A DNA stretch of 55,471 nucleotides, taken from the IMG/VR virus record IMGVR_UViG_3300045970_000148, positions 1-55,471 of that record; one strand, written 5' to 3'. The translations under genes were made by a program, and so were the position numbers. This DNA is from a virus. Numbering within the stretch: the stretch's first letter is position 1; each line of letters begins with the position of its first letter. This document shows, in pieces, positions 1 through 39,890 of the stretch. The notes under the pieces are model-generated. The model ran no database searches and was not told where the DNA came from. It saw only the letters and a list, made by a program, of their open reading frames with translations.

Positions 1-276
1 CAAGATCCACGATGGACGCCAGTTCGTGATCCAGCTCATGAATAGGGATACGGGTACCGTTTTCTTTGAAGTACCTTCTTCGGTCTATCTTGAGCACACG
101 GCCATGATGTTCAAGCAGATCATCAGCCGTAATAGCATAGCGTTCCCGTAACTCCTTACGGATAGCGGCTATACGTGCCACAATGTTAGGTGATGTTAGG
201 AGTTTACTGGCTTCGACGCGTGCCGTGTTATCTTGAACTTTTGGCTTGGCCACAAGATATGCTTTGTAGCCAACAC
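1..276. repeat. Left copy of imperfect terminal overlap
   Basis: Bases 1-276 align without gaps to 55196-55471 with 7 mismatches. Four mismatches cluster near 54-67 and the others are single changes. All lie in the terS reading frame, where residues reading YFKENGTRIP here read YFNEKGNRIP in the right copy. A circular or terminally redundant assembly would normally give identical ends, so the two copies look like two alleles. Confidence 0.9.
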
Positions 277-5325: not shown

Positions 5326-5632
5326 AACCAAACCTCCTTGGTAAATTCTCTGCATTGCTGCAGGTTGTGCGTAACTCCAAACTGTTACCATCTGGAGTGT
5401 CCGACTTCATCTCGACAAAGATAATCAGGCTTTTTACACTCACGGCACCGAGCCTTTCCCCAGCTCTACTTAATCCGTGAGCGACATTGCCTCAGTCTGA
5501 TGCGTCAACCAAGGGTGTCATGACCTAACTATCGTAGCTGGCGTTTCTGCCAACTGAGTCTGGTGAACTTAGGCTCCTTTCGAAGCCACGATCCCTTTAG
5601 GGTCGTGGTAGTTCACCAGTATGGTAAGTCCA
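5326..5632 (-). ncRNA. Omega RNA (HEARO-like) region with guide
   Basis: Gene-free, GC-rich and rich in inverted repeats, directly upstream of iscB where the omega RNA of ISC elements is encoded. The scaffold would run from the left end (5616) towards 5326, with a hairpin at 5586-5608. In this family the guide is the flanking host sequence just outside the left end, i.e. about 16 or more bases from 5617 upwards (minus strand, ending ACTTACCATACTG). Exact ends are not determined. Confidence 0.65.
5586..5608. repeat. Left-end subterminal hairpin of ISC element
   Basis: CCACGA-T-CCCT-TT-AGGG-TCGTGG: ten base pairs with one bulged T and a two-base loop, matching the right-end hairpin core. It lies 8 bp inside the inferred left end and would be the first stem of the omega RNA. 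Confidence 0.75.
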
Positions 5633-7685: not shown

Positions 7686-7955
7686 CTACACGACACCCCA
7701 GTCTTCACCCAGTATGTCTGTCTGTGATGCCAACCACGGAACAAAATTCAAGCCTTCGTCAGCAGTTTTCATCATAATATATGGGAGCATCTTACATTCT
7801 GTGCCCACTGGAAAGGCCGCTGCTAAAGGTCTACCTTCTGTAATCTTTACTTCACTGGCACGGTTATAAAACAGAAACATACCCTTGCCATTCCATCCCG
7901 CTCGCGATACACGTTCTCCTGCTTTTAATGCTTCAAGTGCTTGTCCAAAATTCAT
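7686..7955 (-). CDS. tad2: Tad2-like anti-Thoeris protein (DUF2829)
   Basis: 89 residues, the usual size. The DUF2829 pattern is clear: MNFGQALEALKAGERV at the start, RAGWNGKGMFLF in the middle and WLASQTDILGEDW at the end. Tad2 proteins form small oligomers that trap the cyclic ADP-ribose-type signal made by Thoeris TIR proteins, so the defence effector is not triggered. ATG follows GGGAGG. A recurrent hairpin (7980) lies 25 bp upstream. The call depends on family membership; binding is not visible in sequence. Confidence 0.88.
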   Translation of the reverse strand: MNFGQALEALKAGERVSRAGWNGKGMFLFYNRASEVKITEGRPLAAAFPVGTECKMLPYIMMKTADEGLNFVPWLASQTDILGEDWGVV

Positions 7956-9522: not shown

Positions 9523-9635
9523 ATGCTCTCCCGTTCACGACACAAACCGTCTGCATCCACGGTAACAAGCCCTTGAGTGCACCGCTGTTCCAGGTAATAT
9601 TTACACTGCTCATTTAAACAACGGATGTACTGCAT
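9519..9635 (-). CDS. 38-residue Cys-containing small protein
   Basis: ATG 9635 follows GGAGG; stop overlaps the next ATG. Cysteines at residues 6, 11, 19 and 32 in a C-x4-C-x7-C pattern suggest a metal site. It sits between the second DGR target gene and the zinc-ribbon gene. Confidence 0.6.
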   Translation of the reverse strand: MQYIRCLNEQCKYYLEQRCTQGLVTVDADGLCRERESI

Positions 9636-9688
9636 CACCGGCTACCTCCATGAAAGTTGTCTACGACAAAGCGGGTGCTATCGCACCG

Positions 9689-11071
9689 CTACGCGAGGTA
9701 ACAGGCGGAACGGAAACCCACATAGGCGCCCGCGCCCGCCCGAGAGCCACCCAGGGACACGCCCCACACACCAGCACCCGTAGAGTAGCCCCAGCTGCAC
9801 GACGAGATCGGCACCATGTCCTTCTCAGGATAGTTCCAGTACCCACCATTCATCAGCGGATTGCTCTGCTTGCCGGGGAGCGCGATACCGGCACCGGTCA
9901 ACTGCCAGCCGGTTCCTTCCGGATCGCCGGACAAAGTGCTCAGGTCACTACCGAATCGCTGATAACCGCGAGCAATCGGAAACTCATCAGAATCCGGCAA
10001 TGGCTCGTAATTCTTCTTGCGTCCCTTTGGCCCCCAATGGTCAGTAGGTGAAGTAATGCCGCTGGTCATATCCTTCATGCGAGCAGCGGTATTCATCGCT
10101 AGCAGTTGCTTGCCGTCAGATGTGACACCGGGGTTAATCTCATACATCAGGCCGTTCAGATCAGCCACGCCAGACGCTTGACCGTTGTGGGTAGTACGGT
10201 TGAAATGGTTGGCACTGCCGGTCAAACCGCATTGACCATAGCCGTCACCCTCATAGCGAATCTCTGAATCAAAATAATCGCCACGGCTTCCATTGTTACA
10301 GCCCTTGGGAAAGTTGTTCTTGTCACCAAGCCAACCGCAATGAGTCGTGTCGGTAGATGCACCGGCATGAGCGAGAGAAAGCAGGGCGAGGGCGGCATGA
10401 ATAAAGCGGGAGTTTACAAAGAAATCGGCACCGCGAGTCTTGGCGGCCTGAATGGTTCCATAAAACGCATTATCGGGCCTGCCGTTCAGGTCGTTGATAG
10501 GATTGTGTGAGCTGTATGTAGACAGCGGCTTGCCGAACATCAGCGAAGAAGCGATGCCGCCGTTGTTGGAGCACATGAACTTGTCAACAAACACTCCCGG
10601 CTGAATCACCCCACCGTCATAGAATGCACGGTGCAGGGCATAACCGCTGTGTTTAGCGTGCGCCATATCCTTGAAGTGATCGAATGGTTTGATTGAAACG
10701 GCATGAAGAGGAAGAAGGTTCTTGTCAGTACCGATCTTGTAGAAGAATGCCGGAATCCAGACCATAATCGAACCATCGGTAAAGATGTAGTTACCGTAGG
10801 TATCGCTTGCCGTCATGCCAGCAGGCAACGGCCCAGGACAAACACCGACACCAAACCCATCTTGACCAGGTACACCGATATCGTTCACGGCCCCCTGCTT
10901 CCGTACAGCAAGTATTGCCTCAACCGTTACCGCCTGAGCATCCAGTGTGTTAATGCTGTAGCCTCTGGCAAATTCAGGGTGACAGGTACAGACGAACTGC
11001 ATCACCGCACTGTCAACGTCACTTGCCGTCAATTCAATCTTTGCTCCTTTTTTTGTTCGTTTGATCTTCAT
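9689..11071 (-). CDS. Second DGR target protein (C-type-lectin fold, variable C-terminus)
   Basis: 460 residues. From about residue 90 it is collinear with the main DGR target: YGNYIFTDGSIMVWIP, GYALHRAF, VDKFMCS, NGQASGVADLNGLMYEINPG, and the ending KDMVPISS...YVGFRSACYLA. This ending is coded by variable repeat VR2 and corresponds to the ligand-binding face of the C-type-lectin (formylglycine-enzyme-like) fold. The first about 60 residues are unrelated to those of the main target, so it may attach elsewhere on the virion or act as a secreted binder. The gene is about 9 kb from the reverse transcriptase start and in the operon that also carries a lytic transglycosylase. Confidence 0.88.
   Translation of the reverse strand: MKIKRTKKGAKIELTASDVDSAVMQFVCTCHPEFARGYSINTLDAQAVTVEAILAVRKQGAVNDIGVPGQDGFGVGVCPGPLPAGMTASDTYGNYIFTDGSIMVWIPAFFYKIGTDKNLLPLHAVSIKPFDHFKDMAHAKHSGYALHRAFYDGGVIQPGVFVDKFMCSNNGGIASSLMFGKPLSTYSSHNPINDLNGRPDNAFYGTIQAAKTRGADFFVNSRFIHAALALLSLAHAGASTDTTHCGWLGDKNNFPKGCNNGSRGDYFDSEIRYEGDGYGQCGLTGSANHFNRTTHNGQASGVADLNGLMYEINPGVTSDGKQLLAMNTAARMKDMTSGITSPTDHWGPKGRKKNYEPLPDSDEFPIARGYQRFGSDLSTLSGDPEGTGWQLTGAGIALPGKQSNPLMNGGYWNYPEKDMVPISSCSWGYSTGAGVWGVSLGGSRAGAGAYVGFRSACYLA
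9706..9817 (-). repeat. DGR variable repeat VR2 (remote)
   Basis: 112 bp aligned without gaps to the template repeat at 20931-21042. Twenty mismatches, of which 18 are at template-strand adenines; the two others are also present in VR1. The 3' block TGTGGGTTTCCGTTCCG is unchanged, as expected for the homing initiation site. Confidence 0.95.
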
Positions 11072-11262
11072 GCCGCCTCCCGGTTTTTAAATTGACCATC
11101 TATGCACTCACGACACGCACGCCCTTGATTCGCATGGTCACAATGGCACGGTGTCGGTAATTCATCCCCGCTTCTGGCTGCAACACAGAGAGCCACGACA
11201 AACACTCCGGCCATACTGCCAATGAAAATACCGACCCAGAATGCAACCCATACCGGACTCAT
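11068..11262 (-). CDS. Small membrane protein with Cys cluster
   Basis: 64 residues. One membrane helix (about residues 4-28), then a loop with CHCDHANQGRACREC. Overlaps both neighbours by 4 bp, between the lytic transglycosylase and the second DGR target. Could be an accessory of cell-wall entry or lysis; function not known. Confidence 0.65.
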   Translation of the reverse strand: MSPVWVAFWVGIFIGSMAGVFVVALCVAARSGDELPTPCHCDHANQGRACRECIDGQFKNREAA

Positions 11263-19426: not shown

Positions 19427-19842
19427 AGCCCCAGAACTGCTTTCTCGTCACGGCCCCACTGCCTGACTTCCTCCACAAAGGCACCGAAAGCAAGCAGTGC
19501 ATCTTGCTCCCCCGGTTGGAAGGTATACGCCCCCAGAGCGACACCAACACCAATGCGGGAGAAATACGCCTCATCCTCAAGGCTATACTTTGCCCTGATA
19601 CGCTCCTGCATTCTGCTGGTGATAAGCGCAACGTGGACGCTTGCCGACTTGATCCGGTCGCGTAGCTCGTCGGTCAACGTTACTTCGGTAACAGTTAGCC
19701 GTGAATCATGCACCGGCAGCTCACCGGCCACACTGATAAATGTTGTGCCGTCAAGCGTACACAGTTCGGTAACGCCTTCACCCGAGACACGGTACTCCGT
19801 GAATTCGTCTGAATCCTTTTGGTACTGATAGATTTTTGCCAT
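19423..19842 (-). CDS. Hypothetical protein next to DGR, tail-fibre assembly-like
   Basis: 139 residues. N-terminal beta-rich part (IYQYQKDSDEFTEYRV...), C-terminal helical part shared with the 64-residue protein. Such two-part proteins downstream of fibre genes often help fibre folding, but no family match is claimed. Its start lies inside the reverse transcriptase gene (65-bp overlap). Confidence 0.5.
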   Translation of the reverse strand: MAKIYQYQKDSDEFTEYRVSGEGVTELCTLDGTTFISVAGELPVHDSRLTVTEVTLTDELRDRIKSASVHVALITSRMQERIRAKYSLEDEAYFSRIGVGVALGAYTFQPGEQDALLAFGAFVEEVRQWGRDEKAVLGL

Positions 19843-20797
19843 TGTGAATAGCCTCCTTGAGTATGGATATTAACCGTGGCAAGCTATCGGTACGGCAGGC
19901 GTGACCGAGGATAGATGCCATTGATAATTGATTGCCCTGCTTGCAGGAACGTTTGAACTTGAAAAGGGAATACTTGCGAATGAATCTGCGAGTGCGCCAG
20001 GTGCGATAGCCAACAAAGTTCAAGCCGCGCTTAACCTTCTGAATGCCGAACCGCGATAATGAGAGATGCAGATTGTCAGTGATAAACGCGATGATGGTTT
20101 TCAGATGCTTCACGCAATCAGGACGACTGATACCAATCAGGATAAAATCATCCACATAGCGCACGTACTTTTTGATCTTCAGGACCCGCTTGATAAAATG
20201 ATCGAGCGGATTGAGGTAGATCAGCGCGTACATCTGGCTTAACAGATTGCCGATAGGTATGCCGGTATCGGTATCCTTCTCGGTGTACATCATCATGATA
20301 TTGATTAACCGCTGGTCTTTGATCTTCTTTACCAACTGGCTCCGTAAAATGTCCCGGTCGATACTGGCAAAGAACTTTCGGATATCCAGTTGCAGGGTAT
20401 AGCTATCTCCGTCACTGGCTCGCAATGCCGCCTGAGTGTAGTCGCTGGCTTTGTGAGTACCCATACCGACACGGCAGGCGAACGATTGATCTATGAAGGT
20501 TCGGTTATATATTGGATAGATGAAACGATAGATAGCGTGTTGAACAACGATATCCCGAAAAGCAGGAGCATGAATAATACGCGGCTTAGGTTCTGTGACC
20601 TGAAACACCTGGTAGATACGTGGCCGATAGGAACCGCTGTGAATCTCCCGGTGTAGATCATCAAGGTTTGCGCCCAGATGTTTCTCAAACTCAAAGGTTG
20701 CTCTCTTGGAACGCTTGCCCTTGCGAGCATCCAGAAACGCTTGATAGAGATTCTCAGGGGTAAAGACCTTATCGAACAATCCGCCAGTTCGTTTCAT
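19778..20797 (-). CDS. DGR reverse transcriptase
   Basis: 339 residues from ATG 20797 (AGGGGTGG upstream); the frame is open earlier but that part is template repeat flank. Motifs in order: finger segment KPRIIHAPAFRDIVV (about 80), motif A LDIRKFFASID (about 138), DGR signature IGNLLSQ (about 184), catalytic YVDDF (about 216), then the thumb. The IGxxxSQ motif is typical of DGR enzymes rather than retrons or group II introns. It copies the template RNA, misinserting at adenines, to make variable cDNA. The last 21 residues overlap the next gene. Confidence 0.95.
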   Translation of the reverse strand: MKRTGGLFDKVFTPENLYQAFLDARKGKRSKRATFEFEKHLGANLDDLHREIHSGSYRPRIYQVFQVTEPKPRIIHAPAFRDIVVQHAIYRFIYPIYNRTFIDQSFACRVGMGTHKASDYTQAALRASDGDSYTLQLDIRKFFASIDRDILRSQLVKKIKDQRLINIMMMYTEKDTDTGIPIGNLLSQMYALIYLNPLDHFIKRVLKIKKYVRYVDDFILIGISRPDCVKHLKTIIAFITDNLHLSLSRFGIQKVKRGLNFVGYRTWRTRRFIRKYSLFKFKRSCKQGNQLSMASILGHACRTDSLPRLISILKEAIHNGKNLSVPKGFRRIHGVPCLG

Positions 20798-20930
20798 TGT
20801 GCCACCCCTGACGTTCGGGCAATCCCTACCAGAAAGAAGTGGACTGGTGATTTCGCACGAACTGAGTGCCGGACAATAGCTCCCTGTTTTTCCACTACCC
20901 GCGAAACATAGCGGCATGAGGAAAGAGAGT

Positions 20931-21042
20931 CGGAACGGAAACCCACAGTGTTGCTCGCGCTCGTCCGATAGCTACCCAGGTACACGCTCCACACACCAGC
21001 ATACGTATTGTTGTTCCAGTTGTACGACGAGATCGGCACCAT
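20931..21042 (-). repeat. DGR template repeat (TR)
   Basis: 112 bp in the spacer between avd and the reverse transcriptase gene. Read in frame it would give PISSYNWNNNTYAG..., an Asn/Tyr/Ser-rich version of the target ends, i.e. rich in AAY-type codons that give large diversity when adenines are randomised. The surrounding spacer (20798-21062) has no other gene and would be part of the template RNA. Confidence 0.95.
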
Positions 21043-21062: not shown

Positions 21063-21464
21063 CTACCAACGGTTCTCCTCCTTCAATTTATTAATCCAGC
21101 CGCCAATCATTCGCCCAAGTTCATCATTCAATCTGGTTATCGCGCTAAAGCGGTGTGCTTCAAGTTCACCGGCTGATTTCTCCTGCTTCTTGCCATCCTT
21201 GAAGCGGAAGTAGCCGAGCTCATACGCCAGCAACAATTGCATTCTCAACCGTTCATGCGCGATATCCAGATTTGAAAGCGTGGTTTTCTTGTGATAGCGT
21301 TTCTGGCCTTCGCTTATCAGGTCGTATACTTCATACGCCGTATTTCTGATGCGCTGTTCCAGCGCAAACTTCTCAAACTTCGGGAAGTGATTCAGGTAGA
21401 GGTTCAGGAGCTTGCTAAACTCCATGAACTTTCTACACAAATTTGCCTCAGGGTCGATAACCAT
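21063..21464 (-). CDS. avd: DGR accessory variability determinant (Avd)
   Basis: 133 residues, helical, basic. The pattern LNHFPKFEKFALEQRIRNTAYEVYDLI matches the four-helix-bundle Avd family. Avd binds the reverse transcriptase and template RNA and is needed for mutagenic homing. Located between VR1 and TR, as in the Bordetella phage BPP-1 cassette. Ends 20 bp before TR. Confidence 0.9.
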   Translation of the reverse strand: MVIDPEANLCRKFMEFSKLLNLYLNHFPKFEKFALEQRIRNTAYEVYDLISEGQKRYHKKTTLSNLDIAHERLRMQLLLAYELGYFRFKDGKKQEKSAGELEAHRFSAITRLNDELGRMIGGWINKLKEENRW

Positions 21465-21481
21465 CGGTCGCTATCGCTCTC

Positions 21482-23452
21482 TTACGCAGGGTAACAGGCG
21501 GAACGGAAACCCACATTGTTGCCCGCGCCCGGCCGAGAGCCAGTCAGGGACACGCCCCACACACCAGTACCCGCAGCGTTGTTCCAGTGGAACGACGAGA
21601 TCGGCACCATGTCGTTTATGAAGTATTCATAGAAGTAGTCGTTTCCGAAAAGACTACTGCCTGCGGCAGAGACGCCGTTGCCGTCTTTTGGAAAGCCAAG
21701 CCCCGCGAGCTGCCAAGGATCGCCAGCGGTAGCTTCTGAAAGCACCTGATTAGCAGCGTTGCCGAAGTACATTCCACAACCGCCGTTTACCATTGGCACC
21801 GTGATAACATCGGAATGTGCAGCAACACCAGTTGCGCCCCATACATCAGTCGAGAGGGTATTGCCAGCCCCGAGAGACTTGGCGGCGGTAGCCTTCTTGT
21901 AAACATAGAACGTTCCGAGAGTGATCGTGCCGCCAGAGGTGTACGCCGTGTAGCCGGTAGAGTTGACACCGGATAGCTCAAAGGTGTTCGCCGTGACGTT
22001 GGCAACGGTATGGACACACGTATTTACCTGCGTCATACCAACAACTCCTGATATTACAATCTGCTGGCCGTTGACAAGTCCGTGAGCTGTAGCAGTAACA
22101 ACAGCGGGGTTAGCCTGAGAAATGCCGGTGATTGCCTTGGTGGAAGTGATGCAAGTCAGGCCGGGATTAATATCATACATCAGACCATTCAGATCAGCCA
22201 CGCCAGATGCTTGGCCGTTATGGGTAGTCTTGGCAAAAGTATTGCCGACTCCGCCGCCGTAACCTGCTGAACCGGTTTTGCCGCAATTGGAATACCCGTC
22301 TGTCTGGTAGGTAACAGCGGTATCGTTGACATCCTTAAGCGCGTTATTATTACAGCCCTTCGGAAAGTTTGTTGCGCCCGCTGAATACCAGGCGCAGTAA
22401 GTTGTAGCACTGGAAGCTTGACCATGTGCCAGAGCCAACAGAGCAAGACCGGCAGTAATAAAGCGGGTCGTACAGAAGAACATTGACGAAGCATTGACGG
22501 CACCGTTCACACCATCCCTTGCTTTGGCTGCGGTGATTGCCGAGTAATAAGCGTTTGTACCGGCAGTGCATGTACCTGCTGACGTGTAGGTCGTGAAAGC
22601 GGTCGAGTTGATATTAACCGTGACGTTATTCGCATCGACAACCGAAACAACCTGAGCAACAAGCCCGTTAAGTTCTGTCATGCCGACAACAGCACTGATT
22701 GCAAACCGTTGACCGACAACATAGGAATGCCCGGTAATGGTGATCTGGCAGTTTGCCGCCTTGGTAGCAGCAGTGATTGCTTTGGTAGCAGGGTGAGCAG
22801 TACGAACAGCGGTAAGGTTGGCAATGGTATTGTGGTCATACGCCGTGCTGATCGGATTACCGTTTGCGATTGACGAAGCAATCCGGCCTGTTCCCCAGAC
22901 GTTTTCAGAACACTTGTACTTGTCCACGAAACAGCCGGACTTTTCCACATCGCCATCAATGAACATGCGGTGAATAGCATAACCGGACGCATTCGCCAGA
23001 ACCGTAGACGAGAATGTCTCAAGACCACGCACGTCAACCGAGTTGACACCATGCACACCATAGGTAGGGTTTGATGCATGAGCCACGCGATACCAGAACT
23101 TCGGTATCCAGCACATAATTGAACCATCCTGATACATGTAGTTGCCATAATTGGCGTGAGCTGGATCAGTAGCACCGGGAAGCGCCACAAAACCGGCAGG
23201 CACAATAGGACAAATGCCGACACCGAAACCAGCCCCGCCAGGTGCGCCGATGCTGTTGACCTTGGCGGGAAGCACGAGGTTTGCGGAGGCTGCGACAACA
23301 TCAGCCTGCGCCTTTGCGTCGAGGACGCTTTGAGCGGCGGAAACTGCGGAACCGGAAGCAGCTGTAACCTTTGCATCCAGCGTTGCCTTTGAAACGTTTA
23401 CTGCGGTAGTCAGTGCCGTGGTGGACGCTACCAGATCATCAATAGTTGCCAT
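21482..23452 (-). CDS. DGR target protein, tail-fibre tip with C-type-lectin fold
   Basis: 656 residues. Residues 1-60 are an Ala-rich helical repeat like that of the upstream fibre protein and probably join it. The lectin-type domain begins at about 75 and is collinear with the second target, but has two inserted beta domains (about 221-298 and 435-513) that resemble each other (VVGMTELNG/VVGMTQVNT; YTSAGT/YTSGGT) and recall FCCH-type modules of phage tail proteins. Residues about 617-653 are VR1-coded. It should determine receptor range and be diversified by the DGR. Confidence 0.92.
   Translation of the reverse strand: MATIDDLVASTTALTTAVNVSKATLDAKVTAASGSAVSAAQSVLDAKAQADVVAASANLVLPAKVNSIGAPGGAGFGVGICPIVPAGFVALPGATDPAHANYGNYMYQDGSIMCWIPKFWYRVAHASNPTYGVHGVNSVDVRGLETFSSTVLANASGYAIHRMFIDGDVEKSGCFVDKYKCSENVWGTGRIASSIANGNPISTAYDHNTIANLTAVRTAHPATKAITAATKAANCQITITGHSYVVGQRFAISAVVGMTELNGLVAQVVSVVDANNVTVNINSTAFTTYTSAGTCTAGTNAYYSAITAAKARDGVNGAVNASSMFFCTTRFITAGLALLALAHGQASSATTYCAWYSAGATNFPKGCNNNALKDVNDTAVTYQTDGYSNCGKTGSAGYGGGVGNTFAKTTHNGQASGVADLNGLMYDINPGLTCITSTKAITGISQANPAVVTATAHGLVNGQQIVISGVVGMTQVNTCVHTVANVTANTFELSGVNSTGYTAYTSGGTITLGTFYVYKKATAAKSLGAGNTLSTDVWGATGVAAHSDVITVPMVNGGCGMYFGNAANQVLSEATAGDPWQLAGLGFPKDGNGVSAAGSSLFGNDYFYEYFINDMVPISSFHWNNAAGTGVWGVSLTGSRPGAGNNVGFRSACYPA
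21499..21610 (-). repeat. DGR variable repeat VR1
   Basis: 112 bp, gap-free match to TR with 18 mismatches; 13 at template adenines. Non-adenine changes are at 21516, 21543, 21544, 21568 and 21571; the first and last are shared with VR2. The invariant 3' block and the shared GGTAACAGGCGG beyond it (absent from TR) mark the homing site. Confidence 0.95.
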
Positions 23453-24265: not shown

Positions 24266-27200
24266 TTACTCAATCTGATTTCGTTCCCATGCCATTGTTT
24301 TCTTTTGTGGCTTAAAGGTACGTGATTTCTGAATACTTTCGGCCTTGATGATCGGCACCAGGCCGAAAGCCTGAGACTTGCGAAGCTCCGTATTGTATTT
24401 TACGACGCCACGCACAGCGGCTTTCATATCTTCCGAGTTCTTTGCTCTCCGGATTCCGGCAAGAGCATCATCCCGTTCCGACTTCCAGTAAGCGTTTAGA
24501 TCCCGCTCGTCGCTTTTCAGGTTGGTCCGGTCGCTGATTTCAAGAGGATTGAAACCGAGCATCTTCTTGGCAACATCGGTACCGCTGTATTTTACTTGAC
24601 GACCTGTCTCGTCAAAGACCGGTTTACCTCCCAGCGTTGTGGCTCCCTGATTGTACTGACGTGCAGCTCGCATAGGATTAGCCAAGAATTCAGGCACAAT
24701 ATTTTCTATCGCCCGGAGTCCATCCCCTTTTTGCAGGGCATTCAAAGCCATACCCGGCTTCTTGAGTAATCCGCCCCACGCTCCACCGATACGCTCCCCG
24801 AAGGTCTTTTCAGGATCAGAGATAAATGGAATGTTGACGGCAAGCGCACGGCTCATATCAACACCGACCACGGAGGTAACGCCATGATTGACGAAGTTCT
24901 GTATGATCTGTCCCGGCGTGCTGTTACCAGCTGCGTCCTTGACGAACTTTTTGAACTTCATTTTGTACGAAACCCCAAACCACTTCATGATCCAGTTATC
25001 CATATCGTCGGCACCGGGAAGGGCAAAGACCCCACCCAATGCGGCAATGGCTCCCAGACTCCGGGCAATGGTGGCGAACTCCCCATCTTTGGCACGGTTG
25101 AACATCCAGTGCATATAGTTGTGGACGTACCCCTGAAACAGATAGGCGGTCTTACCCAATGGCCCCAGTTTGCGGACCATCTCGGGCAGGTTCTCTTTGC
25201 CCATGACGTAGTGAGTATTATTCACAAACTCTTCGGCCTTTTTATATGCCGCTTCGTCAATCGTTCCCGCTGCGCTCTTTTTGAATATACGGTATGCGGC
25301 AAGTATGGCCGGTTCACGGTTAAGTTTTTGTTCAACCAACTGGAACGGTGTCATAGATTTTTCAACAAACCATTTCCATTTAGTGCCGAAACCCATTTCC
25401 TGAGTACCGGATATCTGTCGAATTGCCTGCGCTTGTGCCGTGCCCTCGCGAACCGCACGGAACAATACATCATATTCCTCCTTGGTAAGCGTCCCGACAC
25501 CGCCGCGTTTACGGTCTACGGAATCCTTCAATACGTCCTTCTGTGCAGTGGCAAGGGCGGCTATGGCAGAACCCTTGTGACCAGCTTTTTTCATTATCAG
25601 GGAAAGTTCTGCCTGGCCAACGGTATAGTTCTGGAAAGCGTTCAAGAGTGCCGATGATACTTTGAAACCAAGATAGTACACGGCACCGACGCTGCGGGCG
25701 GTTGCTGCCAGCTCATCCAGATAGGTGCTATTCTTCATAGCGTCCTGAACGTAATCATTTACCCAGACTTTATCGGATGGATTGGCCTTGCTGATATCCT
25801 TGGCCGCGCTGGTTGTCTCAATGGCAAAGCGCATCTTGGAGAGCCAGCCGGACATGCCGCTGATATACTCTTTTAATACTGTCTGATAATCAGCATCATC
25901 ATAGCCCTCAATCAATGTCGTCTCACGGCTGATACCGTGACGGCCAAACCCCTGAGCCATGATCTCCTTGGCAATTTCCTGAAATACTTCATGCTTAAGG
26001 GACTGCCACTGCTCAACTGACATTTTCCCGGTAACACCGGCACGATCAAAGGCTTGATTCAGCAAAGCCTCTACAGCAACTTCACTTCCCTTCCATGCCA
26101 ACAGCTCAGACGGCGTGGCGTTGTTGCGCTCGTATTCAACTTCATACTTGGTACCAGCTTCAAAGTTCCCCTTGAGGTGCTTCTTAAGATCGGCCTGAAC
26201 TTCTCTGACAAGCCCCTTGGCTCCTGTCTCGGTCAGAGTCGGTTTCATGTAGACCTTGACCCGCTCCCCTTCCTCGTTCGTGGTGTAGACAGAAACATGC
26301 CAGTCACCATCTTTACGGTTACGCGGTGCATAGCCTCTCAGATTGCCCCACTCGCTCTTGAGCTTGTCCAGTTCGCCACGGTAGCCAAGGATATCCCGGA
26401 AAGCAGAGAGCATATTCCCCTGGTGTTTCTTCTCGGTCTGGTCAACCTGTTTCCAGAAGTCACGATAGGCGGCGATAACAGCAGGGCTCGCCTTGATCTT
26501 GGCGGGGTTCTCGCCGCTGGCAAGTTCATCATCAGTGAGGTTACGCTTAAGACTGCGAATCAGCCGGTGAACTTCACTTGCCTCTTTCGCATCAAGGTGT
26601 GCTGCTCGCTCCATGTTCTTATTCAGGAGTTCGACCAGATCAGCGAACCACTCTTGATCCTTGTATGGAAGCATTGACAGTTCATCGAGCTGCTGGAAGC
26701 GTACCCGATTGGCGGCATTCATAACTTCATGAAAGGCCCGATATGCTTCAACAACAGTTTTACCGACTTTGCCGAACTTGGTTTTTCCCCGGTACAGCTC
26801 GTCTCTGGTGAAGTAGGTGGCAACTCCGTTTTCGTCACCATGCTTTATCAAGTCGTTAAACTGTTTTAATTCTTCTTTGCTGGCTTTCTTAAGAATGTTA
26901 TCCAGCCCTTCAACTCCGGTATAGCCTTCCGATGCCTGAAATAGATCAGAGATAATGCCGTTGCGGTTCTGGCTACGCTCAAGATTGAGATTAACAACAT
27001 GGCGGCGTATCGGTTTGCCCTCACTACCGAACCACGGATTAGAGAGGATCTTGCCGATATTGGCTTTCAGGCGCTCAGGAATACTCTGGCCTGCCAGTTC
27101 AATCAGGCTCTTGACCATATCAGTTACTTTGGCAGGGGCGTTTATCTTGGCGGCGTGTTGTGAGATAGCCTGATCTTGTAAAGAAAACTTGGCGGTGATT

Positions 27201-30200
27201 TCCACGTCTGCATCGTTGAAAATGACGTAGTTGTAATTGCCTTCACCCTTGCCTCGGCTGGAGCCGTCCAGATATTTAATGCCACGGACGCCGAGAGAAT
27301 GGAGATATTCAGAAGCGGCCCGTTGTCTGTTTTGTTCTGAGTCATCCGCAGCAATTGACTTTGATATCAGGTTGTACGCTTGTTGGCCGTTTACATTGTT
27401 GCTTTGTGCATAATCGGCATAATCTCTACTCAACCTACTGGCTTTATGATAGTCAGTTTCGTTATTTACTATGTCGTCAAACGCTCGTTGAATAGACTCT
27501 TTCACGGTTTCACTCTGCTCATTCAGCGGCATGTCCCACAACAGATATTCATCTTCTTTTGGGTCGAGTTCAACTTGATAGAGTTTGCCTTTGGCTTCTT
27601 CTTCAGCCGGTTCCGGAGAACGTTCAAATCCTGTATCTTTTATTTTGTTTTGGAAACCTTCTTCGGCATATCTATAATCTTTGCCAACGGAATTAGCGTA
27701 AACGAGGTTGCTAAACTCAATTGCTGTTTCTCTGTCGTCTATCGACCTTGGAGCGTGTTCGTGGATGTTCCATTCAAATTCTTGCGCAAGTTCAGGGAAC
27801 TCTTTTTTAAACCTTGCATAATCTGCCTCTGCACGATCAGCAGAATCTTTGGCTATTTTCTGCCAGTTTTTATTCCGCCGCGCAAGCGTCTCCTTGTACC
27901 ACTCCGCAACATCCCGGCTACCTGCAAAGTAAAGACCATACCCGTAAGCCTGCGCCCCTTCACCCGTGCCGATATGCGCCGTACTAAACCCATTATGATC
28001 ATGCGGCGAACCATGCCAGGCAGCGGCAAACATCGCCTCATCACCACCCAAACCAACCGACAACCGCTTTTCCCCAATCCGCAACATCTCGGCCACGGCC
28101 AGTGAAAGCTCACTATCAGAGACATGCGAGATAAGCCCCTGCTGCCGTAACCAGTGCTTGATATACATGAACAGGCGCTGCATCAGGCCTGACGGTTTCC
28201 AATCGGCATTCACCGCCTGTTCTGCAATGGCGGCGGTTGCTTCCTGAACGGCACGGCGGTATTGCTTTTCATCGGTCAAATCATAACCGTACCGGTAGGC
28301 TATCCGCTCAAGCATCAGGTGCGCTTCTTTGGCTGCTTCTGTTTTGCCATTTACCGTACGCTTAAACCAGTCGACAGCCAGGTCAACTACCTTCTTGGTC
28401 TGTCCGGCGTGTGCCAGTTCGTGACCAATGACCAGTGCCTTGACGCGGTCCATATTGGGGATGTTATCTGTTATGACATGGATAGTCCCGCCATATTCCA
28501 TTGCCTGGACATGCGCGGGATTTACTTGTGCTAGTTCGATCTGATTGTATGCGGTGGAGTCTGCTGCTTTTAAATCATCGGGGGATTGCCAAACCTTGAC
28601 GCGCTTGGCAATTGGGAGGGAATCAACAAAGGTTTGAACTTCGGGAACATTTAAGGAACTTTTATTCCGGTCTTTTTCTCGTAAGCCGCTATCGCCCCAG
28701 GCATACAAAGCTTGATTTCCTGAAGCATTTGAGCGTGCTGCCCCGGAGTCATACTTGACCGTGACAGCGTTATTGTTGGCGTTGACGATTGCTTCGCTTT
28801 GTTCGTCGGTGTACTCTGGGATTTCATTATCTGACTCCTTTATTCTTGTTGCTGCCTCGGTATGCAACGAGTCCATAACAGCTTTATCACTGTTACTGTA
28901 TATTATCACATTTCTTGATTCCGGCAAATATAATGTAACGTAGTCACCGAACTTTATCTTTCGGTTTTTCGGCATATAATTTTTGTTAAACAGGTGCACC
29001 GAAGCGTCATGCACAAGCAGCGACTTTACAGTATAGGCATGGTCATTTAAAAACTTTGCCTCAGCATCATAGAATTTAGATGCAGCGCCATCTGATGAAT
29101 ATTCACCATTTGTCAGTTTGATTTTTCCAAGTATTTCCCCGAGACTTACCCAGTCATTATAAAATGTCCGTTTTGCCGTCAAGACATGCTTGCCAGCCTT
29201 ATCAAAAACCTGCATCTCGGTATAGCCGTGCTTGCCAGAAATAGATTTAACCGTATGGTCACTGTCTTTCATCAAACCGCTTACCTGGGCGATGTATTGA
29301 GGAATAAGTGTCTTATGGTCTACCTTCTTTATGGGCTCAATGCTTTCCCGGCCAGCATACGGATAATCGGTATGCATATCTCCGAGCGCAAAATTAGCGG
29401 GACCTTCTCCCGGTTTCACTTCATCCGCTGTCAACTCCGCCTGCAACTGCGATAACTCGGCAATCTTCTCATTGAACGCTGCTTCATGTTCAAACGGTGC
29501 GCCGATTCTCTTTATCAACTGCTTCAACTTCGTTTCATCCTCAGCAAGATTCGATTCTGTTCTTCGAAGCGAATCAGATACATCATTCAAACGGTTGAAG
29601 ATCCTCCGGGCCAAACCAGCCCCATCCGTGCCTTGCGGATACATCATCATATTGGTGTCAATTTCTGACGGCACATTATCAGTTATCTGAATGATATTGG
29701 AATACTGTGTTGTCACCGCTGACATAGCAACGGACGCGACTAACGGCATACCATTAATGCTGCCGTACTGCTGTGAATCAGTCCAAACCCCTTTATAACT
29801 ATTGTCAGGGAATTGGTTTTGAAGATCCAGTACCGCCTGATTATACGCAGCAACTACCGCTTCGCCAAACTCACCTGCCTTGTCAATCGTGCGCTTTTCG
29901 ACAACACCCTTGAAGCTACTACCGGAAACATAACCGCCAACAGCCTTTACCGCTTCTTTCAGCTTGGCAATGCTCTTCTGTTCATAGGATATATTCCATT
30001 CCGCTGTATTTTTATCGCCTCGCATCTGGCTTTGTTGCTGGAAGTGTGCTTCTTTCAAGCGGGAGTAGCGCTCGATATCGGCTTGCAAACCTACCAGCTT
30101 GATAACCCGCTCGTCACCAGACGACAAAGCCCGTGCCATTTCATACTGGCTGACTTCTGAAACATCTTCCATTGTGCGCAGATTATCGTCACCCATAAAG

Positions 30201-33200
30201 GCTTGCTCGATAAAGCGCCCTTTGCGGCCTACCATCTGCCACATGGTTGAATCATAACTCCCTTTGGTGGAATACCAATTAGCCTCAATCTCGGTATTCT
30301 GGTTCCCCTGGCGAATGATACGACCGTGAGCTTGTTCGACTGCGGACGGGTACCACGGTGGATCAATATAATGCAGAGCATAGAGACGGGTTTGCAGATT
30401 CTTTCCGACTCCCAGACTGTTGGCATGGCCGATGATGATCTTCTTGCGCCCTTCGCGCATATCCTTCATGACTGACAATTGCTTGGCACTGGTGTCATAT
30501 TCATCAAACCACGCCACTTCACCAGCAGGAATACCGGCAGCTTTCAAGCGCTGATTGATCCAAGCCCGAGCGTCAAAACCACGGCTCTTGGCGACATTGG
30601 CACCGAAACCATGATTATAAAAGACAACCTGCGTGCCGCCCTTGATTGCAGATGGTTTACCATCAACGCCGTTGTATTTGTTATCCTTCGTGTCTTTATA
30701 CACCCGGATAATTTCATCAATCACGCGGTTCAGCTTGCTATCAGGATCATTCTTGGTCGAACCGACCAGGCGCATATCAATAGACGACAAACGGCCATCG
30801 GTAATAATGTTGATAATCGGGTCAGGGTTTCCCGGTTGATCCGGTGTCGGCTTCCAGTCACGTGCCCGCTGCATACGTGGTTGCAGTACGTTTGTCTGAT
30901 ACGCTTTAAGTTCATCTGACGGCGTAGCGATAATCATATTCGGCTTGCCGCCCTTGATATCAGGGCGAACCACATACGCCCCCAGGTGGCTGGAAGTCAG
31001 TACATCCATAAAGGTACGAACACGCTTCATCAACTCCGGCAGGTTATTGAACTTGGCAAAGCGAGAAACCGGCTCATACTTGCCTGCTGCGTTCAACTCA
31101 TAATCCATTGCCGTCTGGCCGAACATCGCCGCCCAAGCATCAAAATGACCGATATCGTCACGCTCCATCTCTTCTTCCATAAAGAAACGCATGACGTTGT
31201 ACAGCTCGCCCATTGTATTTGTGACAGGTGTACCGGAAGCGAAGACATGACTACGGCCAGGTTTTTGATGCTCCATCCAGTTTGTTTTCAGAAACAGGTC
31301 GAGCGCGGTACGACTACCAACAGGGTCAATTCCCTTGACCTGCTGCACTGTGGTAAAATCCAGTTTACGGAACTTGTGCGCTTCATCAACAAACAAGAAG
31401 TCAACACCCAGTTCTTCATAGGTAATGATATTGTCGCCCTTGCCATCTTCAACAATGCTGTCAAAGCGCTGTTCGGCATTTTCAATCATCTTCTCCATCT
31501 TGGAAATAAGATGTCGGGGTGCATCATCGTCTTGTGCTTCCGTCAATGCTTCACGCATGGCGTTCAGCATCTTCTCTTTCACCGGGGCAACACTCTCCGG
31601 TTTCATGCGCAACTTACCAAGTGCTGATTGCGTAATGATGATAGCATCAGGGGCATTCATCGCCGCTTGCGCCATAAAGCGCTTACGGTTTTTCAGATCA
31701 AAGTTAAGTTCATCGGCCACCATAATGCTTGCCAGTGGGTACGCATCCATGAATTCAGCGGACCATTGCGACAGCTGGTCATTCGGCACGACATAGAGCG
31801 GCTTGTTAATCAGCCCCAGGCGTTTCATCTCCATACCGGCAGCAATCATCTCAAGCGTTTTACCTGCACCAACAGCATGTGCCAGATAGGTATTGCCGGT
31901 CTGGATCATGCGCCAGATTGCCCGCTTCTGGTGAGGGTGCAGCTTATACTTGGTAGCGATACCGGGAAGTGTCAGGTGACTGCCATCAAAACGACGGGGT
32001 GCAAGGTTGTTGTACTTCTTATTGTAGAGATCCAGCATCTCGCCAGCACGTTCAGCATCAGTCCAGATCCACGATCGGAACTCTGTACGCATATTGTCGG
32101 CAATTTCATTTACCCGTGCTGTCGCAGCAGGATCGGCTGATACTTTGCCGTCAAGATCTCTTACGGTAATACGAAGAGGTCGCTGATTCAGAACAGCATC
32201 AAGAATCTCATTAGCACCACGATCAGCCGTACCCCATTCAGCGGTTGAGCTACGCAACGACTGGACACCCTGCTTTTTACTGGAAGCACGGCGGCCATAT
32301 CCTTTGGCCGGGGCATTACCCATTGTTACCTTCCAGGTGTTTGTTGCCGCATGGCGCTCAACCTTTATATTCAGGTTCAGCACTTCTTGGGCGAACTCCC
32401 CGACAATATCAGTCGGCATCCACGCCATACCAAGACCAGCGGTAATCTGTCCCGGTGTAAGCGGTTTTGGCTGTACTTCGGTTAATGCCTTGACGTTTGC
32501 GCGAAACTTCTCATCACTCCGTGCCGCCTGTTCAGCTTCTGCCAGTTTAGTAACAACATCACCAGACAGATATTCATCCGCCAGCAGATGTTCACCGGAT
32601 GGCGTTTCATAGATCATATCGCCCAAGGCTTCAATCGCTTCCGTGCGAGACATCTTCATCAATCCGGCGATGTGATCCAGGTCAAGCATCCCGATTTCAT
32701 CAAGCGACAATGCCAATGCATCACCCATGCTCTGCGGATTGGTGGAACGCACCGGCTTCATGACGGTACGACCGGTCAGGAAGGAGGCTTTTGAAATATC
32801 GCCATCGTCGTTGATCTGCTCAAGCGCGAGAACAAGCGAACCCTCAACGTCGATGTTTGCTGTTTTTTCCCACTTATAATTGCGCGACTCTACTTTCTGT
32901 TCATTGCCATCTTCATCAAGCTCTGTTTTGACTTTCAGCGTAAAGTCTTTGATGTTGCCGTGCTTCTTCACAAAAGCGTCATACGCCTTATTCAGTTCCT
33001 TCAACGACTTTTCCCACCCTGCATCGTTGAACTGGTCAAAACGTGCCTGCTTCATCAGGTCACGTAAAGGAATATAATCGGTCAACCAGACTTGCTCTTT
33101 TGCTGATAGCTTCACCATGCTGGAGAGCGACACCCCGGAACCGTTTTCAACCCGCATGATTCCGCTCTTGTCAGACAGGTACACGCCCCCCTCTTTCTTA

Positions 33201-36200
33201 TTCTTGGGGCTAAAATCACGCTCTACGACAACCTGCTTGATCGTTTTCGGATCTTGTCGCATGGCACTGTAGACGTTGGCAGGCAGGTTTTGCACAGCAG
33301 CGGCAAAGAGCTGTTCAATATCGCCTTCCAGTGGTTTAACAGAATAATCATTCTGGCTGAATTGGCCTCGCTCGGTAACATGAGTACCCAACACCATCTC
33401 AGGATGAGCGGCAAAATACTCGTTGATCTGCTTGGTCTGGTCGCCTATCTGGATATCAGCGGTTTTGCCCCAGGCATGGCCACCCCCTTCGACTCCGCTC
33501 AGGGCAGGTGCTTCACCTTCGGCACGTTTGCGCAAAAAGATAACATCCGTAACAACTTCCGTGCCGCTGTGCTGCTTGAAAGCGGTTTGTGGTAGACGGA
33601 TTGCACCCAGTAGATCGGCACGCTCAGATAGATATGCCCGTGCCTTGTCGTCCAACTTATCCATAGTATAGCGACTGGTAACAAACGCCAGCAAACCACC
33701 GGGACGCACCTTGTCAATGGTCTTGGCAAAGAAGAAGTCATGCAGTGAAAACTTGTTTTTCTTGTAATCAGGGTCAGTCAGGATTGTTGTGGATGAAAAC
33801 GGCGGATTGCCGATTGCCACGTCAAAGAAATTGCCGGGGAACTTCTGCTTGGTGTAGTCACCATGGATAATATTCTGATTCGGATAGAGTTGTTGTGCTA
33901 TGGCAGCAGTAATGCCATCCATCTCAATACCGGTATACTTGGAATTGGCGTAGATACCATCAGGCATGGTGCCCATAAAGTTACCGGTACCGGGGCCAGG
34001 TTCAAACACCTTGCCACCAGCAAAGCCCATACGCTCAAAAGCTTTCCACATGGAGCGGGTAATAGCTTCACTGGTGTAGTGGGCATATTGACTGGAGCGT
34101 GCGGCGGTCTTTAATTCTTCGGGAGTAAGCGCAGTATCAAGGCGGTCAACCAGCGGCTTCCATGCTGCTTCTGCCCATTGTGGAATAATGCGCCCTTGTT
34201 CGGCATAGCCGGGGAATATCTTATTGCGGATTTCGCCAGAGCCCCAACCGACATACTTCATCAATAGAAGTTGTTCGTCAGGCGTGGCCATGCGATTTTC
34301 TTCGCGGAGGGTTTTAATCAGTTCAACAATATCAAGGTTACGGCTGGCACTATCCTTCCAGCTTCCGGTACGCTCTAAGCCGCCATTTGGGATTCGTAAA
34401 TCTCCGGTGGCATCGGATCGGAGAATTCCAGATAATCCGCTCGGGTCACTTCCCAGATCTCGCGTTGCGCTTGTTCCGTCTCCTGCACTTGCTGCATCGA
34501 ATCGTGGATCTTGCTGATTTTCGTTAATGCTTGATGAAACACTGACCGATACGACTCCTCCATCTCCACTGCGTACTCTTCCAGGAACGTCTGCAACGTC
34601 CCCGCTTTTGTCAGATCTTTGTGCATCTGAGGTGCCTGTTCCTTCATCGACAATGCTATCATCTGTTCCAGTTTTTTGCCGCTCGGAATTAACATCAGAC
34701 ACCTCCTCGTTTTCTTCTATTATAGCATAGTTATTGTTTTTTACATCATCCATAAAGCGCATGAGATAGGGTTTAATGGCGTTACCAAACTGCTTGGCAA
34801 TGAACTGAAAGAACTCGGTTAACTGCTTGCCGGATTCTTTGAAGTTATTGTATGCTGCCACAAAGTGAGGTTTGGCTTTGGCGTAGGTATGCTCGTCCAC
34901 GGCACCGGGGAAGTTCTTTAGCGAGCCACCACCAAAGATGTCATAGAGCCCTTTCAATGCTTCACCGGCACCCTTGACGCCAGAATCAGCGGCGGCTTTC
35001 AGAATATCGCTTGCGCCTCGGGTGTCTGTTGCAGGTGTGCCTGTTACCGCGTCTTGTCCGTATGCCCCTGAGACAATCGGGTCGTTACCGGTTCCGTAGA
35101 TTGTATCTACAAGATACTTCTTGCGGGTGTCGGTCAAGTGCCGCCATTTTGTCTTGGCCAAGAGATCAGTCTGGCCGCTCATATCCTGCGTAATCACTCT
35201 TCGGCCAACAAGAGTTAATTCGTTATCCCACCATGCTTCATAGTCTATGGTAGAGTTAATTGCCGGTTTCGCTGATCGTGCTGTCTGCTTGCTCCACAAA
35301 TCAAACAGTCCGGCATAACCGCCGATTTCCTTTATTGCTGATTCAAGATCCTCGGGAGATAATGCATAGTAATCCCACACATAAACTTCCAGATCTTTTT
35401 TGAATACATTATAATATTCATCTGTCCCTTGACCGTTGTTTATGAACTTGGTTGCCATACTCCATGCAGCATCAATAGCCTTACCGCGCTTTTCTTTTTC
35501 ATAAGGGGAATTATCTACAGATTTAACCGGAATGCTTTCAGCGACAACATCTACAACACTCTTCCCGGCCAGTGCAGTATTCAATTTATCCAGAAAATCA
35601 AACGGTGGCGAAAACTTATTCCCCGGTGCCGTGCCGCCGACACTGCGGTGATACCAATCGCCATCCACTTTGGTATAGATATAAGGATTGTTGTCAACCT
35701 GAACTTCGTTATCCGCCAGCTCGACCTTTTCAGGTGCAACCGCTTCGCCCTGCAAGCCTTCCACAAACTTCCGTCGTGCAGGAGTATCAGTCACATACCA
35801 AACACGCTTACGCATTGCCCACCGGAAACCTTCCGCCTTGATCTTGCTGATAACAGCATCAGACGGTTTTCCTTCAAAGCGCAATTCAATACCATTCTGC
35901 GCACTGTTGAATGAAACCTTCATCCCGGCAACCGGCTCTACCTTCGGCTTGGCCGCTTCAACCTTCTGCCGGTACTTATCCGCCTCATCTGGGTACTTTT
36001 CTGCCCAAGTATCAAACGCCGCCTGTTGTTCATCAGCAGTCTTGTCAAAAGCAGTTGCCGACTTTTCGTGACTGGCAATATTCTCTTTCTTCTTGGCACG
36101 TTCAGCTGCATTGCGTGAACTCTGTGCCTGTTTGCGGGAATACGCTACATTTCGCAGTAGTGCGTCTGGTTCGACCGCTACTTTATTATAAACCGGGGCA

Positions 36201-39200
36201 GGAACAACTGCCGGAGCGGGATCTGTTTCATGGTTCATGTGATCGAAAGAAGCATACCCTTTGACACCGTTATCCCACACAACATCATACGAATGAGAAT
36301 GACGCTGTGAAGCTTCGGATGAAGCGGACCCGTATGTAATCATGCGGCTGATAAATGTTTCAGCACGGGAAACTTCACCATGCTTACCGTCACTATCCTG
36401 AACACGATCCCCCTCTTTAAAGTAGGGTGCCGTCTGGTCATCTCTTTCCGGTTTTGTTGGATGGGAATCAATAGGAGGTGGTGTACTTTTCCGCTCTTCC
36501 TGCTTTGCCTTATGCTTCTGTAATGCTTTTTGAATGCGCGGTTTGTTCTCTGGCTTGGCCTTGGCTATAACCTGCTTCAAATACGCTTCGTGCTTCTTGG
36601 CTTTTGATAGCGAACGTGCCGGTTTTTCAGCAGCCGTTACATCATCAAACATCGCCGCCATTTCCTCAAGCGACAGGCTGTTAATTTCATCTTCAATGGT
36701 TTTGGTGGCAGTAGGTAGTTCCTCGGCCTTGATACGGGCCTTGCGTGGAGCATTGGTCTTTTTCGGTTTCTCCGCCTTGGCACCATCGACTAAACCAGCA
36801 GCATAGGCTTCATTGGCGGTTTCAGTATGTTGAGTCTGATCCAGCATAGGTTGACCGTGATCCTGCCATCCAGCATGGTAATTGGCGTAAAACATTTTAT
36901 CAAAGTCGTTGCGGTCCCAACTTGGGGCATCCCAGAGATCATACTTATTCAGCATTGCTTCATAAGCTTTTTGGCCAGCTTTGCCGCGTGGATGTTCTTT
37001 CTTGCCAGGCAGCGGGAGCCGTTCTACTGTTTTAACTGCGCCTGCCGTACCTTCGCTTGCAACATCACCTTTACTGACTGGAGAAACGCTTTCCGCTTCG
37101 CTGGTGGCATCTTCTTGCACTTGTCCTTGATCTTCTGTGCTGTTTCCTTGACTGAATTCTGTTGCATCCAGAACCTCCTTAAGATCGTTTTCAACCTCCT
37201 GCCAATCGGCGGCGGTCAGGGTTTCATTATCCAGTCCATCAAGATACTCATCCAGAATATCGCCAGCATCAGCCAGTTCTTGTACCTGTTCATCAAGCCA
37301 CTGGTTACGGCTGAACTCGTCGTACTCTTCATCGGTCATGGCGTTAATCATTTCCGAATAGCGAATCTCCGCTTCGCGGTATGCGTCGGTACCCGCTTCG
37401 GTCGAATGCGTCGAGCGGTGTACGGTACCGCGTTGTGCACTATCCAGCTTATCAAGCAGAGTGTTGATATCAGCAGACTCATCAAGATAGCCCTGTTCAA
37501 CCAATGCTTCTCGCATCCTGTCCAGCGGTATACCCTTGGAACTGATAACATGCAGAATCCCGGCCTTAGCTTCTTTTGTGGCCAGGCTATTCAGTGTGTG
37601 TGCCAGATCCTTGCCGGTACCGGTCTGCTTGTCGATCTCTGTACGACTGATACCGCCCAACTTGGCAATAGCTACAGCAATGCTGTCTTTGGAAGTATCC
37701 AGTTGACGGCGGGTGTTGGCCGGTTTTACTGGTGGCGGTGTTTTGCCGGTCTTGTTTTCGGGAGGAAGTCCACCAAGAAACTTGTCCAGCTCCTTTATAT
37801 ACTTACTGGTATCGTATTTCTCGCCTTGCGGGTTTGTGGCCTTTTCAATATTTGACCTTACTTCGCTTGCAGCTGCCAACAGTGCTTCACGCTCGGTGCC
37901 GTAACCTTTGTTATGGCCGCTCGGAGTCAGGGGCGGGTGTGGCCCACCGTGTCCTGAGTAAGCAGTATTGTAACCGGCGTTAGCGTAATACTCGCCGTCA
38001 GCAGCTTTACCTATCTTGAAATCAAAAAACGGTACAGCTTGAGGACGCTTCGGATCTGGTACGGTATAGCGCGTCTGTTCTGCCACCTGTTCTTCCATTT
38101 TCGGTGTTGTGTTTACTGCTTTACCAGATTCGGCGGCCTGGATCTCTGCATTGATCTCACTCAATCGCTGAGTGACTTCCGCTGGATACACCAAACCGCC
38201 GGTAATACCCTTGCCGCTGTTTTTTGTAAGCAGTTGTTCTTTCTCCTGCTTCAATGCGGTAACACGGTCTGTTACAGCCTGGCTCCGCACGCTGGACACT
38301 TCTTCTTGCGGCCCATTGTTTTTTTGCTGCACGCTGGACAAATCATTGCTTACACCTCCGGGTTGGATATTATCACTTCCGACTCCTGCCACTTGGCTTT
38401 GCACAGGGGGCACTGCCACTCGCTGCCCGTCCATTTCACTCGGCCCTTGGTTTGGCACTTCGGGCAATATACTTGTAATGCCATTGACCTTCTCCTGTGA
38501 CTTACGGAATTCAGAGACAATTCTTGATGCGTATGAAGCGGCACGCTCTCCGTGCAGTTGCATCAAATGGCCGTCTGATTGCTGGTTCTTCCATGCCATA
38601 GCCTTTTCAAGCTCACTTGGAGCTGATGGCAGAGAGGCGGCTTCCGGCTGTATCTCTGGGGCATTGGCAAAAGGTTGAGCTGCAAACGATGAATACATAT
38701 CCGCTGATATCGGTGGCAGATCAGGAAGAATGGAATTGACGGCGCGGGTCATTGCTCCTGCCGGTGGAGTTGCAGCTATACCAAGATCACGTCCCGAATC
38801 CACGGGCCAGCTTTCGGGTATAGAATCGGCGCCAACACCTGATGAATCTTGCAGTATGTTACCAGTGCGTACATTTGCTCCTGTGACAATTTCGGTAGCG
38901 GGTTGGTTTTGCTGATTGACGGCATTGGCTTCCTCCGTTGGTATTTGTGGCTGTTGGCCACGCTGCTCTAAATAATCACCGGCATGACTCAATACCTGCC
39001 CGCCACCACCCATTGCGGCACCGGCCAATCCGCCCAATGCTGCTGATTCGGCAACACGCTCGTCCCACGGCTTGCCAAGCGCAAGGTTCTGCATGACCTG
39101 TTCTTGTGCTGATTGAGGCAACTCTTCAAAGATGCCCTCCGACAACATCCCGCCAGTAATACCCTTGACCATGCCGACTTTACTTTGACCGGCCAGCTTA

Positions 39201-39889: not shown

Positions 39890-39890
39890 A

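What the first reader, a model, noticed from the sequence alone, without database searches (positions are those of the whole stretch)
20931..21042. DGR with one template and two variable repeats in a temperate podovirus-like phage
TR, VR1 (21499-21610) and VR2 (9706-9817) are each 112 bp and align without gaps. Mismatches fall on template adenines in 13 of 18 cases for VR1 and 18 of 20 for VR2. Reverse transcriptase (IGNLLSQ, YVDD) and Avd are intact, so the system looks active and can diversify two separate proteins.
Basis: partly seen in the sequence, partly recalled or inferred. Interest (0 to 1): 0.9.

Follow-up and report, generated by a model that had tools for sequence, protein, structure and literature searches.

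The report
Phage gene-diversifier with a worn template
A phage carries a genuine diversity-generating retroelement that rewrites two different receptor-binding-type genes from one template, and that template, which is usually described as unchanging, has itself lost many of the adenines it works with; a related phage shows the same thing happening in what looks like a single step.

Summary
In detail: a 112-bp template repeat (TR) on the minus strand, two ungapped variable repeats (VR1, VR2), an intact reverse transcriptase and Avd. VR2 lies 11 kb away, in a gene that is not a recent copy of the VR1 gene. The two VRs are 87% identical in DNA while the genes around them are 51% identical, so this TR wrote both. 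Each VR is followed by a GRNA-loop hairpin of the BPP-1 homing type. In relatives, otherwise identical phage contigs differ only in the VR, almost always at TR adenines, so this retroelement lineage is active; the window phage itself was not testable.

The seven mismatches that are not at adenines have an explanation. In 76 other distinct TRs, four of the five sites involved carry A. The window TR has lost 8 of 22 conserved adenines, against 3% in the others. With those adenines put back, VR1 mismatches are 15/16 and VR2 19/19 at adenines. In a related phage, two contigs are identical over 4,681 bp except for eight changes, all at TR adenines, with an unchanged VR. Templates can therefore be hit by adenine-specific mutation, contrary to the usual statement that TR is invariant. 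New variant of a known kind.

The parts
20931..21042 (-). Template repeat (TR), 112 bp, 23 adenines on the minus strand; reads MVPISSYNWNNNTYAGVWSVYLGSYRTSASNTVGFRS
20948..21003 (-). Stretch of TR holding the eight lost adenines: TR positions 40, 61, 67, 68, 71, 83, 89, 95 = window 21003, 20982, 20976, 20975, 20972, 20960, 20954, 20948
   Evidence: alignment with 76 other distinct TRs
21499..21610 (-). Variable repeat VR1, C-terminal end of target 1
21482..23452 (-). Target 1, 656 aa, tail-fibre-like position, with two E1_FCCH-type inserts
9706..9817 (-). Variable repeat VR2, C-terminal end of target 2, 11 kb from TR
9689..11071 (-). Target 2, 460 aa, C-type-lectin DGR variable protein (model closest to TaqVP, Z 26.4)
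21468..21479 (-). Hairpin after VR1: GAGC-GATA-GCGA, GRNA loop closed by two G-C pairs and tandem G.A, weak outer stem
   Evidence: hairpin type described in PMC3240598
9671..9689 (-). Hairpin after VR2: GCGGTGC-GATA-GCACCCGC, seven Watson-Crick pairs with one bulge, GRNA loop, same distance from VR as in VR1
21063..21464 (-). avd, 133 aa
   Evidence: PF22296 and phrog_3206
20798..20930 (-). Spacer between TR and RT (the segment that recruits RT-Avd in BPP-1)
   Evidence: position; role from PMC12875486; not tested here
19778..20797 (-). DGR reverse transcriptase; conserved start MKRTGG (the open frame runs to 20917)
9544..11107 (-). Segment with the VR2 gene that is missing in the related Geobacteraceae prophage, bounded by GTGTCGTGA direct repeats

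Best explanation
This is a BPP-1-type diversity-generating retroelement. The TR transcript is copied by the RT-Avd complex with errors at adenines, and the cDNA replaces VR1 next door and, in trans, VR2 in a distantly related gene in the early region 11 kb away. Each target is marked by an IMH-like end and a GRNA-loop hairpin that the TR lacks. The TR has been losing adenines while the system was in use. Some losses came before both VRs were written (61, 71, 83, 89, whose derived bases the VRs share). Losses at 67 and 68 came after VR1 but before VR2, and those at 40 and 95 came after both. The most likely cause is that mutated cDNA sometimes recombines back into the TR locus itself. Shown: anatomy, adenine bias, writing of VR2 by this TR lineage, adenine loss in TR, and an adenine-specific TR change in a related phage. 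Inferred: the self-homing route, the order of events, and receptor binding by both targets. The confidence below is for the two-target DGR with a template that lost adenines; I put 0.5 on self-homing as the cause of the loss in the window.
For: Adenine bias of both VRs. VR block 87% against gene body 51% DNA identity between the two targets, 42% just upstream of VR; VR2 equals TR at 87/89 non-A positions while the nearest relative's TR equals it at 57/86. Target 2 branches apart from target 1. Hairpins at +23 after both VRs and none of this kind after TR. Relatives: same architecture and VR-only differences, nearly all at TR adenines, between otherwise identical contigs. TR lost 8/22 conserved adenines against 51/1672 pooled; restoring the adenines of each stage gives 15/16 and 19/19 mismatches at A. 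L095 against L098: 8 changes in 4,681 bp, all at TR adenines, VR identical; third record L150 has the L098 state.
Against: No second record of this phage, so its own activity is unproven. In the window alone TR loss at conserved A (8/23) against conserved non-A (4/32) is not significant (P 0.095). Only one strong TR-hit case among 17 near-identical groups. The VR1 hairpin has a weak outer stem.
Confidence: 0.85

Rival explanations
1. The TR lost its adenines by ordinary point mutation, with selection relaxed or favouring a smaller repertoire; no adenine-specific process touched it.
For: RT and TR lineages are old (RT 72% to the nearest relative, dS saturated), and non-A sites of TR also diverged between relatives.
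Against: In other equally diverged relatives the same adenines are 82-100% conserved. The four TR changes dated after VR1 are all at ancestral adenines (P 0.003; 0.012 if site 43 is counted). L095 shows that an adenine-only hit on TR occurs.
Confidence: 0.3
2. VR-to-TR gene conversion: a mutated VR recombined with TR 568 bp away and overwrote part of it.
For: TR and VRs share derived bases at 61, 71, 83, 89; the repeats are close and 84% alike.
Against: TR keeps A where both VRs do not (62, 70, 82, 88). In L095 the new TR bases at several sites are absent from its own VR (TR T where VR keeps A at position 12; C against G at 24). An unseen VR variant as donor cannot be excluded.
Confidence: 0.2
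3. VR2 is only an old duplicate of VR1 and not a live target.
For: VR1 and VR2 share the same base at 8 of 11 co-mutated adenines, P 0.05 with the observed mutation spectrum.
Against: The gene body is 51% identical in DNA while the VR is 87%, the tree separates the two genes, and VR2 has its own hairpin and no unexplained non-A mismatch.
Confidence: 0.05
4. The L095 TR variant is an assembly artefact made from VR reads.
For: These are metagenome contigs, and TR and VR are similar repeats.
Against: The first changed base is only 11 nt inside the repeat, next to TR-specific flank, so short k-mers already tie it to the TR locus; the other 4,673 bases agree.
Confidence: 0.1

Closest known systems
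Bordetella phage BPP-1 DGR
   Same: RT (34% aa), Avd, C-terminal VR, stop codon at the hairpin, GRNA loop (PMC3240598)
   Different: A second remote target; hairpin of VR1 with tandem G.A; TR with lost adenines, whereas TR is described as unchanged in BPP-1 (PMC3240598)
Two-target gut phage DGRs nd4 and nd12 (PMC10743442)
   Same: One TR feeding two C-type-lectin proteins in a phage
   Different: There both targets are part of the DGR cassette; here the second lies 11 kb away. There VR1 and VR2 agree only sometimes; here at 8 of 11 co-mutated adenines (weak evidence)
Trans-acting DGR 2 of Thiohalocapsa (PMC10907252)
   Same: VRs that match a distant TR at all non-adenine sites
   Different: Bacterial genome with several DGR loci
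TaqVP, Thermus aquaticus variable protein (5vf4)
   Same: Fold of target 2 (Z 26.4, 282 residues, 20% identity)
   Different: Target 2 has a 60-residue N-terminus of low confidence

Membership tests
Diversity-generating retroelement | RT of the DGR clade with a [LIV]GxxxSQ-type motif and YxDD | tested here: met
   IGNLLSQ, YVDD; phrog_1423; similar to BPP-1 and other phage DGR RTs
Diversity-generating retroelement | TR/VR pair with mismatches at TR adenines | tested here: met
   13/18 and 18/20; 15/16 and 19/19 after restoring lost TR adenines
Diversity-generating retroelement | Avd-type accessory protein | tested here: met
   PF22296 55 bits, cut-off 40; NF033474 66.8 bits, below its cut-off of 80
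Diversity-generating retroelement | VR at the 3' end of a C-type-lectin-fold target | tested here: met
   Target 2 model matches TaqVP and Mtd; target 1 is homologous (45% aa)
Phage DGR of BPP-1 type | GRNA-loop hairpin just downstream of VR and not of TR | tested here: met
   VR2 complete; VR1 with GATA loop but weak outer stem
Diversity-generating retroelement | Adenine-specific retrohoming in action | tested here: inconclusive
   Shown by near-identical relatives; no second record of the window phage
Diversity-generating retroelement | TR itself stays unchanged (a stated property rather than a criterion) | tested here: inconclusive
   Window TR lost 8/22 conserved adenines; contradicted in relative L095

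The most novel reading that the evidence does not exclude
DGR cDNA re-enters its own template locus in nature, so a DGR slowly uses up its template adenines (a ratchet). The window TR is an advanced case and L095 a fresh one; the repertoire shrinks unless selection or exchange restores the template.
Probability: 0.5. Interest if true: 0.75.

Novelty: new variant of a known kind. Interest (0 to 1): 0.6.

Why it matters
Papers state that TR stays unaltered so that rounds of diversification can repeat (PMC3240598, PMC10907252). Natural adenine-specific mutation of a template would mean these systems can wear out, would limit how long a phage keeps its full repertoire, and would explain part of the non-adenine TR/VR mismatches that are otherwise put down to chance. 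The remote VR2 is also the class of target that a large survey says it could not detect (PMC8144416).

Tried and rejected
RT search in reference genomes found nothing. Exact search for the TR 5' end gave unrelated contigs; the 3' end gave one relative, L147. A second remote target was sought in 28 long relative records and none was found; this absence is weak evidence as many are fragments. VR-to-VR copying as cause of the shared VR bases: not significant once the A-to-G bias is allowed for (P 0.05). Loss of the DGR core in the Geobacteraceae prophage: no RT, TR or target 1 match in the assembly, but the contig ends inside the late region, so inconclusive; absence of the VR2 gene with a deletion-like scar is clear. 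Five loci gave wrong-frame TRs because the target was cut off by a contig end (L037, L050, L065, L073, L101) and three more were misplaced; all were left out. The VR1 target model was not searched against structures. Literature searches found no report of natural TR self-mutation in the held library; subscription papers are missing from it. Treponema TR variants between strains are known (PMC4891356).

Full report
Observation. TR (20931-21042), VR1 (21499-21610) and VR2 (9706-9817) align without gaps over 112 bp and are the only copies in the record. All features lie on the minus strand. There, 13 of 18 and 18 of 20 mismatches fall on TR adenines (P 1.7e-7 and 2.0e-14). The RT carries IGNLLSQ and YVDD and matches phrog_1423; Avd matches bAvd. 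RT against its nearest relative (72% aa): dN 0.22, dS saturated.

Genome context. The record has a 276-bp, 97.5% terminal repeat, so it is probably near complete. Portal, major head protein, terminase and DnaC-like loader are recognised, and there is a tyrosine integrase. A Geobacteraceae assembly carries a collinear prophage with 79-98% identical head and packaging proteins, which supports a temperate phage of that family. VR1's gene sits in the late region beside avd, TR and RT. VR2's gene lies in the early region, next to a transglycosylase-like gene. In the prophage the VR2 gene is missing between two GTGTCGTGA repeats, and the two small genes that flank it in the window are fused into one shortened gene; this fits a deletion there, so VR2 was probably ancestral.

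The second target was written by this template. The two target proteins are about 45% identical, and a tree groups target 1 with L004's target (100/99), the same relative as for the RT, while target 2 sits on its own long branch. DNA identity is 87% inside the VR, 51% in the gene bodies and 42% just upstream of the VR. VR2 equals TR at 87 of 89 non-A positions, whereas L004's TR equals the window TR at 57 of 86. Common descent of the genes cannot give this; copying from this TR can. The target 2 model resembles TaqVP (Z 26.4) and Mtd (Z about 12).

Homing signals. BPP-1 needs a hairpin with a GRNA loop after VR (PMC3240598). Both VRs are followed at the same distance (23 nt) by a GATA-loop hairpin; the TR is not. 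VR2 has a Watson-Crick stem; VR1 has GAGC-GATA-GCGA, with tandem G.A. Among 51 distinct sites in relatives, 29 are of the G.A type, 19 Watson-Crick and 3 unclear, and no TR flank has the G.A type. One RT-Avd pair thus appears to accept both hairpin types.

Activity of the lineage. Relatives share the architecture VR-avd-TR-RT. Contigs that are identical over about 1.6-2.3 kb elsewhere differ in the VR by up to 23 bases, nearly all at TR adenines; the eight contigs L183-L190 show six VR versions with no other difference. It could not be done on the window phage.

The template has lost adenines. Relatives' TRs read roughly NWNNxxNAGVWxxNxNNxRTNSNNNVGFR; the window's reads NWNNNTYAGVWSVYLGSYRTSASNTVGFR. 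Of 22 columns that are A in at least 80% of 76 other distinct TRs, the window differs at 8 (40T, 61T, 67G, 68G, 71G, 83G, 89G, 95C); pooled loss elsewhere is 51/1672, and the next worst have 5 (P 1.6e-7 against the pooled rate, with the caution that TRs are related). The window TR has 23 adenines; the median elsewhere is 28. All eight lie in codons that are AAY in the relatives.

The VRs date the losses. Both VRs carry the derived base at 61, 71, 83 and 89, so they were written afterwards. Both keep A at 95 and have G, not the TR's T, at 40, so these were lost later. VR1 keeps A at 67 and VR2 has the TR's GG at 67-68, so that loss falls between. Restoring A at the right stages turns the mismatch counts into 15/16 (VR1) and 19/19 (VR2) at adenines; one site (43, VR1) stays unexplained. 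The four TR changes dated after VR1 are all at ancestral adenines (P 0.003). This dating is inference from parsimony.

A fresh case in a relative. L095 and L098 (two metagenomes) overlap by 4,681 bp with eight mismatches, all in TR, all at L098 adenines, in TR positions 12-57; the VRs are identical. A third record, L150, has the L098 state over 2,415 bp. The chance of all eight at A is 1.1e-5, and of all eight in TR about 1e-13. The L095 VR is not the donor at several sites. So adenine-specific mutation does reach a TR in nature. It is rare: one clear case in 17 near-identical groups, with a single TR adenine change in two others, one of which also has a non-A change.

Interpretation. cDNA made from TR is homologous to the TR locus itself, so occasional recombination back into TR is the simplest cause; VR-to-TR conversion from an unseen variant and, for the window, slow point mutation are the rivals. 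I put 0.5 on self-homing as the cause in the window and higher (about 0.75) for L095. Whichever route, the statement that TR stays unaltered (PMC3240598, PMC10907252) does not hold strictly. Hankyphage TRs showed no substitutions (PMC6199706), so stability is the norm.

Novelty. Two-target phage DGRs are known (PMC10743442), and remote targets are known though not detectable in a large survey (PMC8144416). The membership in DGRs is secure. What I did not find in the held library is natural adenine-specific mutation of a TR.

Noticed in passing
window 3716-5616 (-): Complete IscB element inside the phage: IS200-type TnpA, IscB (NF040563, 298 bits) and its HEARO/omega RNA at 5400-5616 (Rfam RF02033, 108 bits); not aligned in the related Geobacteraceae prophage.
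   Followed up: partly
window 24266-39958 (-): A single open frame of 5,230 aa; 5,109 aa in the related prophage. Function not examined.
   Followed up: no
window 7686-7955 (-): Tad2-like domain protein (PF11195), a candidate Thoeris anti-defence gene.
   Followed up: no
window 21482-23452 (-): Target 1 carries two stretches matching E1_FCCH (PF16190) that target 2 lacks.
   Followed up: no
relatives' VR downstream sites, 51 distinct: A conserved hairpin GAGY-GRTA-RCGA with tandem G.A next to the GRNA loop in 29 of 51 sites; published examples show 7-10 bp GC-rich stems.
   Followed up: partly
window 1-276 and 55196-55471: Imperfect (97.5%) terminal direct repeat, so the record is probably a near-complete genome.
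   Followed up: partly
window 11068-11262 and small frame ending near 9520: Two small cysteine-rich genes flanking the VR2 gene are fused into one in the related prophage, a deletion-like scar.
   Followed up: yes
L170: Another TR poor in adenines (18) with 5 of 22 conserved adenines lost.
   Followed up: no
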